Source: Benincasa hispida (taxonomy: Eukaryota; Streptophyta; Magnoliopsida; Cucurbitales; Cucurbitaceae). Taken from it: a stretch of 64,000 nucleotides of DNA. Numbering within the stretch: position 1 is the stretch's first letter; the number at the start of each line of letters is the position of its first letter. Below are positions 25,033 through 62,564 of this stretch, piece by piece. Both the position numbers and the translations under genes were made by a program. Location: positions 35,956,340 to 36,020,339 of the forward strand of contig NC_052350.1 in assembly GCF_009727055.1 (NCBI RefSeq), written 5' to 3'. The notes under the pieces were generated by a model. The model saw only the letters and a list, made by a program, of their open reading frames with translations, was not told the origin of the DNA and made no database searches.

Positions 25033-25649
25033 CATCTCCGACAAATTAATAATTAGACTATCACTAGCTAAAGTGGGGACTGAATCACCTGCATTTTTAT
25101 TACAAATTCATGGTGATATATGTGGACATATTAACCCACCAAGTAGATCATTTAGATATTTTATGGTATTAATAGATGCATGCAGTAGATGGTCACACGT
25201 GTACTTATTATCAGGTCGAAATCTTGTATTTGCAAGATTACTTGCTCAAATAATTAAGTTAAGAGCACAATATCCCGATTATACAATTAAGATCATTCGT
25301 TTTGATAATACTAGTGAATTTACATCCCAAGCTTTTGATAATTATAGTATGCCAATTAGGATAAGTGTTGAACATCTTGTAGCTCATGTTCATACACAAA
25401 ATGGTGGTTTAACAGAATCATTTATAAAAAAATTTCAATTAATTGCAAGACCATTACTTATGAGAGCTAGACTTACTTCATTTGTATGGGGACATGTTAT
25501 TTTGCATGCAACATCATTAGTATGCATTAGGCCAGTAGCTTATCATAAGTACTCATCATTACAATTAGCTCATGGTCATGAGCCAAATATTTCCCATATG
25601 AGAATTTTTTGGTGTGCAGTATAAGTTCCAATTACTCCACCACAATGCA
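25033..25649 (+). pseudogene. Copia integrase fragment (element A, left half)
   Basis: Reads through KLIIRLSLAKVGTESPAF, then an integrase core: IHGDICGHINPPSRSFRYF, VLIDACSRWSHVYLL, KIIRFDNTSEFTSQAF and HVHTQNGGLTESFIKK. This is the rve domain of a Ty1/Copia polyprotein with its D..D..E pattern. An in-frame TAA stands at about 25622 where a tyrosine codon is expected after WCAV; the frame stays meaningful up to the CTAAG at 25650. The upstream gag and LTR are absent (5' truncated). The right half resumes at 34552 after an 8.9-kb insertion. Confidence 0.85.
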
Positions 25650-25654
25650 CTAAG
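25650..25654. repeat. 5-bp target duplication CTAAG (left)
   Basis: Repeated exactly at 34547-34551. Together they bracket element B inside Copia relic A, and the codons on each side join in frame when one copy is removed. Confidence 0.9.
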
Positions 25655-27485
25655 TGTCGGATCAACACCATCACACAATGGAAGAAATCAGGATCCATAA
25701 GCATTCTAATTCATTAATTTTGGTTGAAAAGAAACATGCTAAAAGCAGAGTATAATGGGTTTCAAGAACATACCTTGGCCGAACCAACGAAATCTCCATT
25801 TCCAGCTGCAAATTCCTCCAAATTCTTGTGTAGACCATGGCAAGATCTTTTTCACTATTCTCTTGGTGCTCTAGATTGAGTTGTGTGACTGAAAATAAGC
25901 TGGAATCAAAGAAAATATGGAGAAAGCTCACTGAACCAACCCATTGAAGAACACCTTCTTCATCCGAATTTTTCAGCAAAAATTCAGTCGGTTCTCTCCT
26001 CTTTCTTCACTCCAATCTCTTCAATATATTGCAGACTATCATGCAAAGAGATGTGTTGCATGAGATGCAATTCCTGCTTGGAGCAAACAAAAGAAGAAGG
26101 TGGGTTCCTTGTAAGCTACTTGAAAATGAACTTTGAAAAACCCATTTCAAGTTTTGTGTAATTTTCAATTTCCAAAATTTATTTTGATTTTAAAATCATA
26201 TTTTTCTAAAATCAAAATTTATTAATTTACAAATTAATTTCATAAATTAATTTTCTAATAAAATTAATAAATAAATATTTAAAAAATTTAAAAAATTCTA
26301 ATTAATTTAATATCCAATATTAAATTAATTTTTACACAAATTCATATTCATATATTTAAATTAAATTTAAATATATTATCTCCAATTCCGTTTGATTCTA
26401 ATTTGAACGTTTCAAATTAACTTATCACGCTACTCTAGAGCTAATCCATTTTCGAGCTAGTAGGGGAACCTTATGGACCTACAGATCATGGGCTCCAACG
26501 ATCCAAGATTAATCGGCTAAACTCATTAGACCGATCTAACCCCCATTCGTTAACTAATGAGTCACTCCACTAAAGCCTATAGTCGAACTCCCCTCACTGT
26601 AGATATATTATGTCCACTCGATATAACCATGATTAGTAAGTTAACCCTTCACGGGTTGTTCGTAATAAGGGCTAGGTTAAATCTCTATTTTACCCCCGAA
26701 ATTACGTCTTGTTCCTTAAGTCCCCACTGATCCCCTAATGAACAATTATTTTGTGATCCAATCACAAAACCGAATCTCTCTCATACCAAATGAGAGGGCG
26801 GGATCCCTTGTTCATGCCCCAGAATCAGCACTTAAGGGAACAACATCTCTACTATCTCTAAAGCGGGTTGGAGTGAATTCCCTCTTGCACCCTATGTCCC
26901 CAGCTATCTATCTAGTCTTATCCTGAAATGGCAGCCATATTGAGTCGGCGTTGTTGAGCCCCTCACCTATGCAAATCTAAGGGCAATTTCAGATAAATAG
27001 GAGTTCATAGTTAGCTTAGGATTAAGGTAAAGTTATGTAGGTCATCGCTTTGAAATAGTCAGTCTTAAACAGTAAACAACGTTATAAAGTAAGAGTGACT
27101 CATTTCGTGGTCTAATCTTGTACAAACTCTTTTGCATAAGGACACCCCCATTCCTCATGTCCAACATGAACGAATTAGGATCACTTCGTTTGTAGCAGTT
27201 TACAGCTCCTTGTAACAACTATAGAGTAGGTCGTATCCAATAGTGTTACCAAAATAAGGTACCCAACCTCATCCATGTACTATAGATCATTTTGACTATT
27301 TAATCGAACCTGATCCACCTTTACGTCTCCACATAAAGTTCAAGTACTCATCCAATAGTCAAGGGACTTTTAGATTTATTGGATTTCTATTCAAGCAATA
27401 GATCTATTTAATAACACCTTTATTGAATTTTCAAAATAAGCTCCATTGTTTACATACCACGAGTTTTAGGACATAAAACTCAACA
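25655..27485 (-). repeat. 3' LTR of element B
   Basis: Sense starts TGTTGAGTTTTATGTCC at 27485 and ends at 25655. It is nearly identical to 30967-31920 plus 33679-34546. Open frames inside it are not genes. Confidence 0.85.
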
Positions 27486-28860: not shown

Positions 28861-30536
28861 TTCACATAATTATCCTCAATAAATTTATTTGTTGCCAACA
28901 CTTGTATTAATGAACTTTTCATTCTGAAATTAAATATCCAATCAAGTTTTAGTAATTTTAATAATTTACCCAAGATTATTCTTTTGCAACGATACTACAT
29001 CAAGATATTCTTGACTAAATACTACCTCTAGAATAACTCATATTTCGATAGTCATTTAGGTACCGCTTTTGGTCAGACATTATTAACACTAAATAATTCT
29101 GTAAGTGTAGACCCGCCATTTTTGGATCTTATAGAACGGATGAGTATCGCTCTGAAAATAGGAAACAATACCTAGGACAGAACTATAAAACCCTATTCAT
29201 GTTACTGAAGCCTAGGTTGTTCCGAATCCTATGTTACAACCCTCTGTGGGGATAGCCGTCGTTAAACGACTAGCAAAGGGCCGCTTAAAGCTAACCAGCA
29301 GGCGCAACATAAGAATCTCACGGTTCAGACTAATGGAGGAGACCGTAGGATATGTTGACACATTTTCTTCACCTATTTTCTATGAATTACTTCCTCCGTT
29401 CACCTTGGTATTGATGCATACATCCGCTCTCCATAGGGAGGTCACTCCTAGGGTGATACGAAGCATCATATGAATCTCATGGTGTGAACTATATGGAGAC
29501 GTGGCAGTTGAAATCATACACTTGATTTCTGTTCAAACAAATTCCCCTTATTCACTCGAGTCTAAATTTAAGCTAAACATTACTCTTCGTAGGGAGGTCA
29601 CTTCCAGGGTGACACAAAGTACCGCTTAAATCCAGACTATGAACTCTTAGGGACACGAGAGCTAAGAATAACATATCGTGTATGTTATTAATCTCCTGCT
29701 GAAGTTTTCTAATAACTCTATCATATAGAAGTTATTCACTACCACTGAAGTATTCTAACGTTTGGGTAACTTTGTACTTAGGTTCTTTCCCGACTAATAA
29801 AAATAACCATAAGTCTATGTGGTTTATCCATGTATAACTTTTATAAATGGACTTAAACCTACGATGTCTAGGTGATAAATGCTTTTATTACCTCACATCT
29901 CTCACGGATACTCATAAAACTGGTTACCAACGCTCAATTATTCGGCCATAATCCCTAGGTATGAGGTGTTCTGTAGACCGTTAACTTAAATACCCCCAAC
30001 CTTCGACAGGATTATATACCGATTGAGTTTGTAACCTTAATTTTACAAGTTTAATGATCTATTTTAACTAATTAAAACAAGTGGTTAACCTAAGTGAGCA
30101 TGCAGCTGTTCTTTGTTATGGATTTTAAATGTCTAACCCAATTTTATAACAACTTATAAAACTTTAGATATGCTAAACATCCACAACATACAGGCATTCA
30201 ATATCTAATATAACACTTATATTAAATACAAGAAACCCTAACATGCATACTATATATTATAACAAATTATAAATACTTTCAATGCATGTTGCATGGTTCC
30301 TATGGTGGGATTTTAAATCTTAATGATATACTATATGCACAAACAAGATTTATTCAATTATAACATACAACCAATGCATAAATAATTAAACATGTACTGA
30401 TATGGTTTTAGTTTTGGCAAAAACAAGCAAGCAAAAGCCTAACTATTACAAAAACAGCTTCAACACCGCTCGAACCACTCCAAAACCGCTTGAACTGGAC
30501 CCGAACCATCTGAACTGGACCAGCAGAGACTAAATC

Positions 30537-30574
30537 CTGTCTCTTATACACATCTAGATGTGTATAAGAGACAG
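30537..30574. other. Tn5 mosaic-end junction adapter (assembly artefact)
   Basis: A perfect 38-bp palindrome made of CTGTCTCTTATACACATCT followed by its reverse complement AGATGTGTATAAGAGACAG. Each half is exactly the 19-bp hyperactive Tn5 mosaic end used in transposase library kits. The head-to-head pair is the circularisation junction of mate-pair libraries. It has no counterpart at the matching place of element C and is almost certainly not plant DNA. Confidence 0.95.
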
Positions 30575-30690
30575 CTTAACGATTAACGTCCGAAGCTACA
30601 TGATTGTTTAGCTTTTCCTTCATATCGTCTAACGTATGAAGCTAAACGATGATATGAACAGAGAAGCTTAACGACGATATGAACAGAGGC
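30575..30690. repeat. Array of CTAAACGAT-type words, truncated by the adapter
   Basis: Words GCTTAACGAT, GATTGTTTAGC, ATCGTCTAACG, GCTAAACGATGATATGAACAG and a second GACGATATGAACAG. They sit where element C carries the AATCTCGCT array. Confidence 0.65.
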
Positions 30691-30952: not shown

Positions 30953-30965
30953 GCTCTTATACCAA
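30953..30965 (-). promoter_or_regulatory. Primer-binding site of element B
   Basis: Sense TTGGTATAAGAGC, one mismatch from the initiator-Met tRNA site, next to the 5' LTR. Confidence 0.75.
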
Positions 30966-30966
30966 T

Positions 30967-31920
30967 TGTTGGATCAACACTATCATGCAGCGGAAGAAAT
31001 CAGGATCCATAAGCATTCTAATTCATTAATTTTTGTTGAAAAGAAACATGCTAAAAACAGAGTATAATGGGTTTCAAGAACATACCTTGGCCGAACCAAC
31101 GAAATCTCCATTTCCAGCTGCAAATTCCTCCAAATTCTTGTGTAGACCATGGCAAGATCTTTTTCACTATTCTCTTGGTGCTCTAGATTGAGTTGTGGGA
31201 CTCAAAATAAGCTGGAATCAAAGAAAATATGGAGAAAGCTCATTGAACCAACTCATTGAAGAATACCTTCTTCATCTAAATTTTTTAGCAAAAATTCAGT
31301 CGGTTCTCTCCTCTTTCTTCACTCCAATCTCTTTAATATATTGCAGACTATCATGCAAAGAGATGTGCTGCATGAGATGCAGCTCATGCTTGGAGTAAAC
31401 CAAAAAAGAAGGTGGGTTCCTTGTAAGCTACTTGAAAATGAACTTTGAAAAACCCATTTTCAAGTTTTGTGTAATTTTCAATTTTCAAAATTTATTTTGA
31501 TTTTAAAATCATATTTTATTTCTAAAATCAAAATTTATTAATTTTACAAATTAATTTTCTAATAAAGTTAATAAATAAATATTTAAACAATTCTAATTAA
31601 TTTAATATCCAATATTAAATTAATTTTTACACAAATTCATCTTAATATATTTAAATAATATATTTAGATCATATTTAAATATATTTTCTCCAATTCCATT
31701 TGATTCTAATTTGAATGTTTCAAATTAACTTATCACGCTATTCTAGATCTAATCCATTTTCGAGCTAGTAGGGGGACCTCATGGACCTACAGATTATGGG
31801 CTCCAACGATCCAAGATTAATCAGCTAAACTCATTAGACCGATCTAACCCCCATTCATTAACTAATGGGTCACTCCACTAAAGTCCATAGTTGAACTCCT
31901 CTCACTGTAGATATATTATG
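30967..31920 (-). repeat. 5' LTR of element B, first part
   Basis: Matches 25655-26606 with few differences. It is interrupted at 31920 by a solo LTR; the remainder is 33679-34546. Confidence 0.85.
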
Positions 31921-33673
31921 TGTTGGGTTTTATGTCCTAAAACTTGTGGTTTGTAAACATTAGAACTTATTTTGAGAATTCAATAAAGTTTTTGTTGAAT
32001 ATATTGTTTTTTAGAAATCCAATAAACCTAAGTCCTTTGACTATTATATGAGTACTTGAACTTTATGTGGAGACATACAAGTGGATCAGGTTCGAGTAAA
32101 TAGTCAAAATGATCTATAGTATATGAATAAGGTTGGGTACCTTATTCTGGTAACACTATTGGAGGCGGCCTACTTTGTAGTTGTTACAAAGAGTTGTAAA
32201 GTGCTACATATGACGTGATCCTAATTCGTGCATGTTGAGACATGAGAAGTGGGGGTGTCCTGTGCAAATGAGTTTTGTGCAAGATCAGACCACGAAACCT
32301 GTACTCTTACTTTATAACGATGTTTACTGTTTAAGACTGACTATTTCGAAGCAATGACCTAGGTAACTTAACCTTAATCCTGAGCTAACTATGAACTCCT
32401 GTTTGTTCGGGATTATCCTTTAATCTGCAAATGGTGAGAGTAGACCATTGCCTCTGCTCAATAAGCTTACCATTTTGGGGATAAGACCGGATGAATAGCT
32501 GGGAACATAGGGTGCAAGAGGGAATTCACTTCTACCTGATTAGGATTAGTAGAGAGGTTGTTCCCTTCAAGTGCTGATTCTGGGTCTTAAACAAGAGGCC
32601 TCACCCTCTCATTGGCCTGAGAGGGATTCAATTTATTGATTGGATCACAAATCAATTATTCATTAGGGGATCAGTGGAACTTAAGGAACAAGAGGTAGTT
32701 ACAGGAGTAAAACAGAGATTTGACCCAACTATTATTACGAGCAACCTGTGAAGGGTTAACTTACTAATCATGGACATAATATATCTATAGTGAGGGGAGT
32801 TCAGCTATGGGCTTTAGTGAAATCACCTATAACGAATGGGGGTTAGATCGGTCTAATGAGTTTAGCCGATTAATCTCGGATCGTTGGAGCCCATGATATG
32901 TAGGTCCGCGAGGTCCCCCTACTAGCTTGTAAATGGGTAAGCTTTAAGGTAGCTTGAGAAATTAATTTGAAATGTTCAAATTAAACGGAACAAGAGAATA
33001 AATATTTAAATATGATTTAAATATATAAAGATGATTATTGTGCAAAAATTAATTTAATATTTGGTATTAAATTAATTTAAGAAAATCAATTTTTAAATTA
33101 AAATGATTTAAAAGTCATTTTGTGTTTTAAAAAAGATTGAAAAAACGTTTTGCATGGATTGCACAAACTGGAAAAAAGAGTTTTCTCCATTATCATCATC
33201 TTTATGTTCACACACAAAGCATTTTCTTCTCTACTTTGATTCTCCAAGCATGAGCTGTAAGCCATGCACTCCATTTCTTTGCATGTTCATCTTAATATAT
33301 AAAGAAGATTGGAGTTGTTGGAGAAGAAAAAAAGAGGGATATAGAATTTTGAGAGAAATTTCGATGAAGAAGATACTGTCTTCTTCAACTTGTTGCTATG
33401 AGCTTTTCTTGTTTCTCCACATCTTCAAGCTTTTTTTGAGTCCCACAACTCTGCCTAAAGCTCCAAGATCATAGTAGGGAAGGCTTTGAGGTGATTCACG
33501 TTGATATCAAGTGAAGACAGCAGCTGAACAGACATTTTCTTGAAGAGTTCATCAAAGGTATGTTCTGAAAACCCATTTTTTATGAAGAGCATGCTTTAGT
33601 TTTTGCCAAAATTAGTGAATTAGAATGCTTATGGATCCTTGATACTTCCGCTGCATGTTGTTTAACTCTTACA
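31921..33673 (+). mobile_element. Solo LTR (1.75 kb) nested in element B's 5' LTR
   Basis: Begins TGTTGGGTTTTATGTCC and ends TTAACTCTTACA, with TTATG duplicated at 31916-31920 and 33674-33678. The host LTR sequence (GATATATTATGTCCACTC in the intact copy) is restored when the insertion and one TTATG are removed. It belongs to the same family as element B's LTRs but points the other way. The open frame at 33154-33474 lies in LTR sequence and is not a gene. Confidence 0.9.
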
Positions 33674-33678
33674 TTATG

Positions 33679-34546
33679 TCCACTCTATATAACCATGATT
33701 AGTAAGTTAACCCTTCACAGGTTGTTCGTAATAATGGCTGGGTCAAATCTCTGTTTTACCCCTGGAATTACCTCTTGTTCCTTAAGTCCCCACTGATCCC
33801 CTAATGAACAATTATTTTGTGATCCAATCACAAAACCGAGTCCCTCTCATACCAAATGAGAGGGCGGGATCCCTTGTTCAAGTTTCAGAATCAGCACTTA
33901 AGGGAACAACCTCTCTACTATCCCTAAAGCGGGTAAGAGTGAATTCCCTCTTACACCCTATGTCCCCAGCTATCTATCCAGTCTTACCTCCTGAAATTGC
34001 AGTCATATTGAGCCGGTGCTGTTGAGCCAACCCTCCCTATGAAAATCTAAGGGCAATCCCAGATAAATAGAAGTTCATAGTTAGCTCAAGATTAAGATCA
34101 AGTTACCTAGGTCATCGCTTTGAAATAGTCAGTCTTAAACAATAAACAACGTTATAAAGTAAGAGTGACTTATTTCGTGGTCTGATCTTGTACAAACTCT
34201 TTTGCACAAGGACACCCCCACTCCACATGTCCAACATGAACGAATTAGGATCACTTCATTTGTAGCACTTTACAACTCCTTGTAATAACTACAAAGCAGA
34301 CCATATTTACCAAAATAAGGTACCCAACCTTATCCATGTACTATATATCATTTTGACTATTTACTCGAACCTGATCCACCTTTATGTCTCTACATAAAGT
34401 TCAAATACTCATCCAATAGTCAAGGGACTTTTAGGTTTATTGGATTTCTATTCAAGCAATAGATCTATTCAATAACATCCTTATTGAATTTTCAGAATAA
34501 GCTTCATTGTTTACATACCATGAGTTTTAGGATATAAAACCCAACA
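33679..34546 (-). repeat. 5' LTR of element B, second part
   Basis: Matches 26607-27485 and ends with AAACCCAACA next to the CTAAG duplication. Confidence 0.85.
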
Positions 34547-37189: not shown

Positions 37190-37980
37190 CTGGATGACGA
37201 CCTTGCATGCGTCTATCCAACCTCATATGCGTTCATCTAACCACACATGTCTCATCCAATTGCCGCATCGGCGCATGAGTCCATTCAATCTTACCTTGTG
37301 CATCTAATTGACGCAACTTGGTCACATATGCTAGATGTTTGCAAGGCTCATCTTTGGTTGCATATCCTTTCCTCTCGCATGGCTTACCTTTGCCTATGCG
37401 CTCAACTAGGATAATGACCAACACTCTTTCAATGCATACTACAAGCTTGTCCTATGCGCCTACATCCCCTCGGATGTCCCAATGCATAGCACATCACCAA
37501 CGTATAGTGTTGCTGCATACTACTAACGCATGGTATCGCCACATAACACCAACGCATAGCGTTGCCGCATAGCACCAATGCATAGCATCGCCGTATGCCT
37601 CTATTGCATAGTATTGTCGCATGCCATCGCGCAGTATCACCGCATGCCCTCGCATAGCATCACCGCATGCCTTCGCATTGCATACCTTTGCGTAGCATCA
37701 CTGCATGCCTCCAACGTCGCATGCCTCCATCGCGTAGCACTGCCCCTTGATCAACCAGCGCATGCACTCTAACGCCCAGCGCCCTTGTCCGCGCAACTTG
37801 AGGCTGCCACATGTGTTTTTCTAACCTCTCAAGATATAGGCTACCGCATGCTTGTCCCCGCATAGTCTTTCTTCTTGGCCATACTTTAGCCTCTTTAAAC
37901 GCCCAAATAAACTCTCAAAGGTTCATGGCCAACGCATGGCACCACACCAACACTTAGCACAAGGCCAACACATTGTTTAG
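37190..37980 (-). repeat. Array of GCATAGC / CGCATGCC words
   Basis: Dense degenerate words such as AACGCATAGC, ATCACCGCATGCC and CCAATGCATAGCA every 12-25 bp, upstream of the LTR's TATA box in sense. The homologous slot of the 53460-56305 copy holds ATCGTTTAGC words instead. Short open frames here are shadows. Confidence 0.8.
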
Positions 37981-40330: not shown

Positions 40331-42664
40331 TTTATTTTCAACGATACTATAGTGAGTCAGAATACGTGCTGCCGAGGGGCAGTCAGATACTCCTTCACTA
40401 AAACAAACAATTTTGACCAAACACTATCTCCATAATAACTCTTATTCCTATAGACGTTTAGTTACCATTTTCGGTAAGAAATTACTAATACTTTAATAAT
40501 TCTGTAAGTGTAACCCTCCGTTTTCAGACATCAGAGGTCGGCCCCAACTATGCTACCGAAATGGAGAGTCAAGGTTGGGAATGGACCTAAGAAATTCTAT
40601 CTATTTCTAAAGTTTGAGTTGTTCCGAATCCTGTTACAACCCTTCGAAGGGATAGCTGTCGTTAAACGGCTAGCAAGGGTTGCTTAAAGCAAACCACCAG
40701 ACGCAACATAGGAATCTCATGGTCCAAACTAACGAAGAGACCGCAGAACATATTGACACAAATCCTTTAACCACTTACTATGAACTACTTCCCATGTTCA
40801 CCTTGTTATTAACTCATACAAACACTTTCCGTATGGAGGTCACTTCTAGGGTGACACGAAGCGTCATATGAATCTCATGGTGTGAACTATGTGGAGACGT
40901 GGCGGTTGAAATCTTTTTATCATATATATCTGATTTATGTTCGGACGACTTTCCCTTATTCACCAGAATCTAGGTTTATGCAAATACTTTCCGTATGGAG
41001 GTTACTCCCAGGGTGACACGAAGTACCACTTAAACCTCGATTGTGAACTTTTAGGGACGTGAGAGCTAAAAATAATGTATCGTATATGTTATTAATCTCC
41101 ACTGAAGTGTTCTAATAACTTTATCATATATAAGTTATTAGACTCCCACTGAAGTGTTCTATTGATATGGGTAAAATTATACTTAGGTTCTTTTCAGCTA
41201 ATTAAAACAACCCTAAGTCTAAGTGGTTTATCCAAGTATAACACTTTATAATTGGATTTTAACCTACAATGTCTAGGTGATAAACTGTTTTATTACCTCA
41301 CACCACTCACGTACGCTTATAAAATCGGTTAACAACACTCAATTATTTGGCCATAATCCCCAGGTAGGAGGTGTTCCGTACAACATCTACCCCTATCCTT
41401 AGACAGGATTATCTACCGATTGAGTTTGTAATCAGGTTTTACAAGATGTCGACCTATTTTAACTTATTAAAACAGGTGATTAACTTACGTGAGCATGCAG
41501 CTTATCTTCGTTATGGATTTTAATGTCTAATGCAATTTTATAACAACTTATAAAAATGGACATGCTTTTACATCCACAATATGCATCAAAGGCATTCAAA
41601 TTAACATAACAGTTATAGTATATAACAGAAAACCCTAAACATGCATTCTATACATTATAACAGATTATAACATATACATAATGTATGTAACATGCTTCCT
41701 ATGGTGGGATTTTAAATCTACATGGCATACTGTATGCACATACAAGATTTATTAATTATAACATATATCACATGCATAAATAATTAAACACATACTGATA
41801 TAGAGTTAGTTTTGGCATAAACAAGCAAACAAAGGCCTAAGAAATACAAAACAGCAAGAAACAATTCCAAACTGCTTCCGGACCACACGAACCGCTCCAA
41901 ACCGGATCCAAACAGCTTGAATTAGATGTGAACCACCTGAACCGGACCAATCAAAATCCTTTTGAAGGTGAACCGAGTCAAGTTTGAAGAAAACTGGCCA
42001 AACCAGTCAATCCTTGATGGTCCCTGCTTAGTCAACGGGTCAAACTCGTTCAAACCGATTCAAAATTTTGCTCAAACTCGATCTCTCGCTCCTAGCTCAA
42101 AATCTCGCTCGAACTCAATTCAAAATCTTGCTCGAACTAGAAATCTCGCTCAAACTTGATTCAAAATCTCACTTGAACTAGAAATCTCGCTCGAAAATTC
42201 CATCAGAATCTCGCTTGAAACGAAATCTCGCTGCTTGTACATGGAATCTCGCTGGAATTGTGAAAATCTTGCTCTCGCTTGAATGGAAATCTCGCTCTTG
42301 CTTGAACTTCAAATGGTAATCTCGCTGGAATTTTGAAGATCTCGCTCTCGCTTGAGAGTAATCTCGCTAACTTTGTACAACGAGATTTGAGCAGATGCTG
42401 AAGAACTGGTTTCTGCTGCTCGACCTTCTTCATTTCTTTCTTCAATTACAACTTCAATTCAACTCTAATGACTCCAAATAAATTACAGACTCTTTATCAC
42501 ACATATAAGCACATCAAACAAGAGCCAATTATAAATTTAATCAAGGAATCAAGGAGAAATTAAATGCCAAATCTCAGAAAACCATATCAGTGCACCATTT
42601 TCATATATGTCATGAAAAAACACCCACCACACCAAAATTAAACTAAATCGAATGCTTAAATGAT
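40331..42664 (-). mobile_element. Long conserved leader of element C
   Basis: Co-linear with the leader of element B (28900-30950). It contains an AATCTCGCT array at 42060-42400 and ends at the primer-binding site. No coding sequence. Confidence 0.65.
42060..42400 (-). repeat. Array of AATCTCGCT(C/T)GAA words
   Basis: Around 15 occurrences of ATCTCGCT/ATCTTGCT joined to CGAACTxxAA or TGGAATTTT. Spacing is irregular, 15-30 bp. The element B counterpart of this slot holds CTAAACGAT words. Confidence 0.8.
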
Positions 42665-42677
42665 GCTCTGATACCAA
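42665..42677 (-). promoter_or_regulatory. Primer-binding site of element C
   Basis: Sense TTGGTATCAGAGC, a perfect plant Copia initiator-Met site. The 5' LTR that should follow at 42679 is absent; unrelated GC-rich DNA begins there. Confidence 0.8.
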
Positions 42678-55079: not shown

Positions 55080-55990
55080 TCATCAGCCTTGCGTAACGCA
55101 AGCCTTAGTACCGCTCCATCGCTTAGTTCCTGCATCTATTGCTTAGCTCCAACTCCCCATCGTTTAGTCCATCGTGCAGCTTTTTCACAGCATCGCTTAG
55201 TTCCATCGCTTAATGAATCTCTCGCTGTCTCTCGCTATAATCGTTTAGTACCTACGTCCATCGCTTAACACCAACGCCTGATCGTGTAGCTCAATAATTT
55301 AGTAAACAATCTCCCTCTCAACAATCTCGCGCATAACCTATCACTTAGCTATCACCCCCATTGTTTATCTCATCGTGTAGCGCTGACGCCTTATCGCCCA
55401 ACGTATCCGCTCATCGCTTAGCGTCATCGCCCAGCATCTGCGTCTATCTGCTAACGCCATCGTTTAGTATTCCACCTATCGTATAGCACGTCCACTCATC
55501 GTCTAGCGCAACACGACTATCGTCTAGTGCCCACGCCCATCGCGTAGCGCCATCGTGTAGTCCATCGCTTAGAGTTTGCGCATCGTTTAACGCTTGATGC
55601 TATCGTATAGCACGTCCACTTATCGTCTAGCACAACACGACTATCATCTAGTGCCCATGCCTATCGCGTAGCGCCATCGTGTAGTCCATCGCTTAGCGTC
55701 TGTGCATCGTTTAACGTTTGACGCTATTGTATAGTGCTATCGTTTAGCGCTATCGCCTAGCTTCTACACTTATCGTCTAGCGCTTACACTAATCGTGTAG
55801 TACTTACTGCCTATCGTATAGCCCGATCGTCTAACACGTCACTTCTCATAGTTTAACGCCACGCGCATCTTCACCATCGTCTAGCCCGTCGCTGAGCTCT
55901 ATGCATTTTCTATATGATCGCCCACCTCATAGCTATACGCTCGCCTACCTTGCTGCTTATTTGCTACACAATCGCCTACCTCATCATGTA
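55080..55990 (-). repeat. Array of ATCG(T/C)NTAGC words
   Basis: More than 40 degenerate words: ATCGTTTAG, ATCGCTTAG, ATCGTCTAGC, ATCGTGTAG, ATCGCGTAGC and ATCGTATAGC, about 12-25 bp apart. A larger internal duplication of roughly 128 bp is visible (55478-55608 and 55609-55735). The array lies upstream of the LTR's TATA box in sense. Spacers are not unique and of no fixed length, so this is not a CRISPR array. Open frames inside are shadows. Confidence 0.85.
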
Positions 55991-60307: not shown

Positions 60308-62564
60308 CGTCAAAGTTCCAACTCTAAGATAGTATTCATTGGCATTACGTTCTTCCATGAAATGTTGCTGGTGCGTTGACACCGATCACATTTCATTGTG
60401 TAGTCAGCAACATCCTTAAATAATGAAGGCCAGAAGAATCCACTTTGTAAAACTTTGGCTGCAGTACGTTGTCCTCCAAAGTGCCCTCCATATGGCAAAT
60501 CGTGGCACTGCGATAATATGCGTTGTTGAGCAGCATCTGGGACGCATAGTCGAATGATTTGGTCTGCGCCTCTTTTATATAGATTCGATTCATCCCAATA
60601 ATAGTGTCTGCATTCATTCTTGAGCTTCTTCTGTTAATGGTAGGTGTGATCTTCAAGAACGTATTCACAAACCAAATAATTAACGATGTCTGTATACCAG
60701 GGCAATTCTTCTATGCGAAACAGCTGCTCGTCCGGGAACACGACACTCACTTCAGATTCATTGCTGCCAACCTCAGGATTTTCTAATCTGGACAAGTGAT
60801 CCGCAACTTGATTCTCTGTCCCCTTCCGATCAATTATCTCGATATCAAATTCTTGAAGGAGGATAACCCATCTGATCAGCCTTGGCTTTGCATCCTTCTT
60901 TGTCATCAAATATTTGATTTCCGAGTGATTAGTGTGAATGAGTACCTTAGTTCCCAATAGATATGCCCGGAATTTTTCCAACGCAAAAATTACAGCCAGG
61001 AGCTCTTTTTCAGTGGTGGTATAATTAAGTTGAGCAGGGTTCAGAGTTTTACTCGCATATGCGATGGGGTGCAAAATAGTTTTCTTCTTTTGCACTAATG
61101 CAGCTCCCATCGCATACCCGCTTGGGAGTGTCCAATCTGGCTCAATCAGAACGGGTGCGGTAATCAGCACATCTTTTAAAATTTTGAATGCGTTGAGGCA
61201 ATTGTTGTCAAATTCAAACTTTCTGTCTACCTCTAACAATGCACTTAGTGGTCTTGCTATTTTAGAAAAGTCCTTGATGAATCGTCTATAGAATCCGACA
61301 TGCCCTAAGAAGCTTCGCACAGCCTTCACGTTGGTTGGAGGTGGAAGCTTTTCAATTTTATCAATCTTTGCTTTGTCCACCTCCAACCCTTCTCGGGAGA
61401 CCTTATGTCCCAACACTATTCCCTCCTTCACCATGAAGTGACATTTTTCCCAATTGAGCACCAGGTTCGTCTCTTCACATCTTTTCAAAATTTTCTCCAA
61501 GTTGGCCAGGCAGAATTCATAAGTGTTCCCATAAATGGAGAAGTCATCCATAAATATTTCTACTGAGTTCTCGAGATAATCTGAAAAGATCACCATCATG
61601 CACCTCTAGAACGTGCTTGGCGCATTGCAGAGGCCAAACGGCATGCGGCGAAAAGAAAATGTCCCATATGGGCAGGTGAATGTGGTCTTGTCTTGGTCTT
61701 CAGGAGCTATCATGAACTAATTATACCCAGCATATCCATCCAAGAAGCAATAAAAATCGTTCCCTGCTAATCTGTCCAGCATTTGATCGATGAATGGCAA
61801 AGGGAAGTAATCTTTTTTTGTGGTCGCATTCAATTTGCGGTAGTTCATGCAGATGCGCCATCTAGTGATGGTCTTTTACGGTATTAATTCATTATTCTCA
61901 TTTGGGACTACCGTCATTCCTCCCTTCTTCACAACACATTGCACGGGGCTGACCCACATGCTATCTGCAATGGGATAGATAATGCCTGCATCCAGCCACT
62001 TGAAATCTCCTTTTTTACGACCTCCTTCATCGCAGGGTTAAGTCTGCGTTGATTTTCAATGGTTGCTTTGTGGTCGTCCTCAAGACGAATGTGGTGCATG
62101 TAGTACGCAGAACTAATTCCTCTCATATCAACAAGCGTCCAACCGATTGCTCGTACATGCTTCTTGAGAATTATCATCAACGCATTCTCTTGATCTGTGT
62201 TAAGTGTGGAGGAAATTATCACTGGCAACTTCTCATTCTGCCCCAGGAATGCGTACTTCAAATGTGTTGGTAGAGTTTTTAATTCAAGGGTTGGTGGTTC
62301 CACGAGAGAAGGTTGCATTATTTTTCTTTCTTCTTTCGGCTCTACTTTTTGCATTGCCATCAATCCTTCTTCTTTGTTTGTTTTTGCTACGATCGCATTA
62401 TAGGCAGCTACGGATGCATTGGCATCCTCTTCTTCACATTCTTCATCAGACTTTTCTTCTTCAATCAAATTTAGGTCATCATCAGAATCTTGCAGGTCTT
62501 TCTCATTAGGAAATTTCATGGCACGAATTATATTAAACTTGGGCTTCTGTCTATTTATGCTCAA
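60308..62564 (-). pseudogene. Ty3/Gypsy RT and RNase H of element G, with stops
   Basis: From 62564: an acidic region (EEEKSDEECEEEDANASVAA), then the RT entry LEDDHKATIENQRRLNPAMK. A one-base loss near 61998-62010 shifts the frame. RT continues with in-frame stops at 61876-61878, 61717-61719 (YN*F, normally YNQF) and 61606-61608 (TF*R, normally TFQR). The YxDD box is intact as FMDDFSIYG. RNase H follows ([20 protein letters not shown]) to DHLSRLENP. The integrase zinc finger region is GGHFGGQRTAAKVLQSGFFW...CDRCQR at 60310-60498. Another frame change lies near 60310. Clearly inactive. Confidence 0.85.

What the first reader, a model, noticed from the sequence alone, without database searches (positions are those of the whole stretch)
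30537..30574. Sequencing-library adapter embedded in the assembly
The 38-bp perfect palindrome is two 19-bp Tn5 mosaic ends head to head (CTGTCTCTTATACACATCT and its complement), the exact junction of transposase-based mate-pair libraries. It lies inside element B's leader, where element C has no such sequence. The flanks may have been joined artificially, so distances and the truncated word array next to it should not be trusted, and true sequence is probably missing.
Basis: partly seen in the sequence, partly recalled or inferred. Interest (0 to 1): 0.9.

Follow-up and report, generated by a model that had tools for sequence, protein, structure and literature searches.

The report
Mate-pair junction adapter left in assembly
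A 38-letter string identical to a synthetic adapter used to circularise DNA for mate-pair sequencing sits inside what is likely a plant retrotransposon; it was likely left there by an untrimmed sequencing read, so it is a laboratory artefact and the join around it should not be trusted.

Summary
Bases 30537-30574 are a perfect 38-bp palindrome, two 19-bp Tn5 mosaic ends head to head. The identical string is printed as the ring adapter of a mate-pair-type library (PMC7357533, passage). At those bacterial and viral sites the bases before it are often repeated directly after it, as reading round a circle would give: 23 of 134 sites against 1 of 630 control points. In the window neither flank has another copy and there is no 9-bp target repeat. 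It is a library adapter, not biology. Transposase-based library is not proved, because the same 38-mer is also ligated to sonicated DNA. Missing sequence is plausible but not shown: relative C has 429 bp where B has 109 bp plus the adapter, in a region that differs between elements. The whole-assembly search did not complete.

The parts
30537..30574 (.). 38-bp mate-pair junction / ring adapter, perfect palindrome
   Evidence: identical string in PMC7357533 (passage)
30537..30555 (+). first 19-bp Tn5 mosaic end
   Evidence: 0 mismatches
30556..30574 (-). second 19-bp Tn5 mosaic end
   Evidence: 0 mismatches
30300..30536 (.). left flank: aligns to relative C up to 30522; last 14 bp unaligned and without another copy
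30575..30669 (.). right flank, 95 bp not aligned to C; holds most of a two-copy 25-bp word array (30638-30688)
30953..30964 (-). primer-binding-like motif of element B (initiator tRNA type, motif recalled), 1 mismatch; C has the exact motif at 42665-42676

Best explanation
The 38 bp at 30537-30574 are letter for letter the synthetic junction adapter of a mate-pair-type library, likely carried into the assembly by an untrimmed read that bridged a break in the leader of a likely plant LTR retrotransposon. In such a library each long fragment gets a 19-bp half-adapter on both ends, or a whole ring adapter by ligation, and is closed into a circle, so a junction read runs from one fragment end through the 38-mer into the other end (protocol passages). 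A read of that kind given untrimmed to an assembler or gap-filler would write the adapter into the contig (inferred). The break probably arose because this leader holds a short-word tandem array that short reads resolve badly (inferred). Whether genomic sequence is missing, and how much, is not determined.
For: Exact 38-mer, no extension. Identical string in print as a ring adapter; the 19-nt half named as the Nextera mate-pair adapter in PMC4675938 (passage). Exact recurrence in at least 120 stretches of 19 bacterial genomes, 7 stretches of 6 viral contigs, 4 of the 7 within 10 bp of a contig end, and 5 plasmid records; none in complete E. coli genomes or phages. The opposite arrangement of the two ends gives 0 viral stretches. 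X-adapter-X at 23 of 134 sites against 1 of 630 control points. No 9-bp target repeat in the window. The site lies at the edge of a tandem array.
Against: The window itself shows no duplicated flank, though 76 of 144 sites in other assemblies lack one too. No second copy of the adapter and no other adapter stub was found in this 64 kb. The library used for this assembly is unknown, the whole assembly could not be searched, and no N run marks a scaffold gap in the window.
Confidence: 0.96

Rival explanations
1. The same adapter artefact, but the join is chimeric: the left and right flanks come from two different retrotransposon copies, so element B's leader as written does not exist in the plant.
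For: The last 14 bp of the left flank and the first 95 bp of the right flank do not align to C, and the words differ: GAAC-type words like C's on the left, a 25-bp word found nowhere else in the window on the right. Beyond that stretch both flanks align to C, but separately. In other assemblies extra copies of the flanks are common, 68 of 134 sites against 23 of 630 control points.
Against: A change of words along a leader can be natural. No source copy of either flank was found in the 64 kb. The parts that do align lie in the expected order and orientation relative to C.
Confidence: 0.2
2. A real insertion in the plant DNA: a cargo-less mini-Tn5 made of two mosaic ends.
For: The ends are in the orientation that a Tn5-derived element would have (recalled).
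Against: No 9-bp target repeat: the 9 bp on the two sides differ. No cargo between the ends. The mosaic end is an engineered hybrid sequence (recalled).
Confidence: 0.01
3. A natural palindrome of the retrotransposon that resembles the adapter by chance.
For: None beyond its position in an AT-rich repeat region.
Against: 0.01 matches to one half expected at up to 3 mismatches, 2 exact ones found; longest palindrome in 40 Markov resamples 22 bp.
Confidence: 0.003

Closest known systems
Nextera Mate Pair junction adapter (tagmentation, then circularisation)
   Same: The 19-nt half is named as that library's adapter in PMC4675938 (passage); two halves head to head make the 38-mer seen here
   Different: Nothing differs in sequence; that this library was made for this genome is not known
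Biotin-labelled ring adapter ligated to sonicated fragments (PMC7357533)
   Same: All 38 letters identical (passage)
   Different: No transposase step; cannot be told apart from the Nextera case by sequence
IS50/Tn5 ends
   Same: The mosaic end derives from them (recalled)
   Different: 3 mismatches to the outside end and no match at up to 3 to the inside end (sequences recalled); no cargo, no 9-bp target repeat

Membership tests
Mate-pair junction adapter artefact | Exact 38-mer, two mosaic ends head to head | tested here: met
Mate-pair junction adapter artefact | Recurs in unrelated assemblies independent of organism | tested here: met
   none in complete E. coli genomes or phages
Mate-pair junction adapter artefact | Flank duplication or wrap-around at the site | tested here: not met
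   none in the window; not required, since 76 of 144 other sites also lack it
Mate-pair junction adapter artefact | Absent from the real DNA (independent reads or PCR) | not testable with these tools
   no reads or independent assembly of this plant held
Mate-pair junction adapter artefact | Further copies in the same assembly | not tested
   The genome search 'own' unanswered; none elsewhere in the window
Tn5-type transposon insertion | 9-bp target-site repeat | tested here: not met
Tn5-type transposon insertion | Cargo or transposase between the ends | tested here: not met
   the ends abut at 30555/30556

The most novel reading that the evidence does not exclude
The adapter marks a chimeric join: element B's leader as written is made of two different retrotransposon copies, so its short, odd word array is an assembly product and not a natural variant.
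Probability: 0.2. Interest if true: 0.1.

Novelty: not a real feature. Interest (0 to 1): 0.05.

Why it matters
It has no biological meaning, but it warns against reading element B's leader (array length, word order, distances) as natural. The 38-mer is also a simple flag for unreliable joins in public assemblies, including three records titled as chromosomes (L025, L101, L115/L120).

Tried and rejected
Mini-Tn5 insertion: rejected for lack of a 9-bp repeat and of cargo. Wrap-around signature in the window: looked for, not found. Directional signal at bacterial and viral sites: single extra copies of the left flank lie downstream in 21 of 29 and of the right flank upstream in 23 of 32 (p about 0.02 each, weak, and the sites are not independent). 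Other adapters in the window: TruSeq stub, two Nextera read overhangs and a loxP half gave no hit at up to 1 mismatch. N runs lie within 1 kb of 48 of 147 sites in other assemblies, for which I made no control. Species identification: two protein searches gave plant relatives, none close enough to name the species. Literature: five searches; in their listings I saw no paper about this site, but the species is unknown, so this says little.

Site counts differ by filter: 154 copies of the 38-mer in 127 loci; 7 lie within 60 bp of a locus end, leaving 147; one search drops 3 with low-complexity flanks (144); one search drops 13 of the 147 with N within 20 bp (134).

Full report
Observation. Window 30537-30574 reads as a perfect 38-bp palindrome that does not extend on either side. 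Its halves are the 19-bp Tn5 mosaic end in opposite orientation, 0 mismatches each, the only matches in 64 kb at up to 3 mismatches against 0.01 expected. It is the longest perfect palindrome of the window; the next is a 36-bp AT run, and 40 Markov resamples reached at most 22 bp.

Identity. PMC7357533 prints the identical 38-mer as the biotin-labelled ring adapter that circularises fragments of about 4 kb made by ultrasound (passage). PMC4675938 names the 19-nt half as the Nextera mate-pair adapter (passage). PMC4074385 describes tagmentation with junction adapters, circularisation, and why trimming is essential (passages); PMC6298255 describes tagmentation with junction adapters and their trimming (passages); PMC5053417 is an example from a plant genome (passage). 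A circularisation library is therefore well supported as the source of the string; which of the two chemistries was used cannot be told from the sequence.

Distribution. By record titles I count 19 genomes, among them cyanobacteria, enterococci, streptomycetes, a Bacillus and metagenome bins; one Enterococcus assembly (10A9_DIV0425) supplies 39 of the 120. Viral contigs give 7 stretches on 6 contigs; in 4 of the 7 the adapter lies within 10 bp of a contig end. Plasmids give 5 of 72,556 records. The 5,426 complete E. coli genomes and the 50,697 phage records give none. The opposite arrangement of the two ends gives 0 viral stretches. This pattern follows the way an assembly was made rather than the organism (inference). 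Records near the window's own genome may be left out of these collections, as the tools say.

Calibration. At 134 of the bacterial and viral sites with usable flanks, the bases just before the adapter are repeated directly after it in 23 (8 to 770 bp; 18 of them 20 bp or longer; 7 genomes by titles), against 1 of 630 random control points in the same loci; any extra copy of a flank is seen at 68 of 134 against 23 of 630. X-adapter-X is what reading round a small circle would give (inference). With a slightly different filter 76 of 144 sites have no extra copy, so its absence in the window is ordinary. Many sites share an assembly and are not independent.

Setting. The window looks like plant DNA. 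Of 46 listed ORFs I scanned 10 against Pfam, and 7 had matches: gypsy-type and copia-type reverse transcriptase, retroviral protease, integrase, MuDR-type and DUF4220, one of the DUF4220 matches below its cut-off. Named relatives are mostly plants (only the best 120 of 7,986 are listed). The species is not identified. Element B is read on the - strand: a primer-binding-like motif lies at 30953-30964 beside a repeat unit at 30961-31921 that matches 25649-26613 at 91%; the unit continues at 33670-34546 (matching 26604-27485 at 91%) after an inverted related copy. These boundaries, and that B is an LTR retrotransposon, are inferred. The adapter lies about 380 bp from the motif. Relative C aligns to B up to 30522 / 41949 and again from 30670 / 42379. 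Between those points C has 429 bp with a word array, and B has 147 bp, 38 of them adapter.

How it got there. Shown: the sequence, its identity in print, its recurrence elsewhere, and the disturbed flanks at a share of the other sites. Inferred: that an untrimmed junction read bridged a break caused by the tandem words in B's leader. Not determined: whether sequence is missing, whether both flanks come from one element copy, and how often the 38-mer occurs in this assembly (searches did not complete).

Verdict.

Noticed in passing
30638-30688, 37495-37676, 42097-42368, 55476-55734: Short-word tandem arrays with different words, two of them (30638-30688 and 42097-42368) in the leaders of the related elements B and C and the others elsewhere in the window. 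The words differ between B and C although the sequence on both sides of the arrays is related.
   Followed up: partly
60634-61599: A protein labelled reverse transcriptase of Shigella flexneri (P0102, on a 1,297-base contig) is 61% identical to this plant gypsy-type protein; that record is probably plant contamination (inference).
   Followed up: no
L025, L101, L115, L120: Bacterial records titled as chromosomes (one as 'complete sequence') hold the exact 38-mer, so adapter remnants persist in records presented as finished.
   Followed up: no
31921-33669: A copy related to the repeat unit of element B, in inverted orientation, interrupts that unit (25669-27485 matches 33660-31921 on the minus strand at 75%), which looks like a nested insertion.
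   Followed up: no
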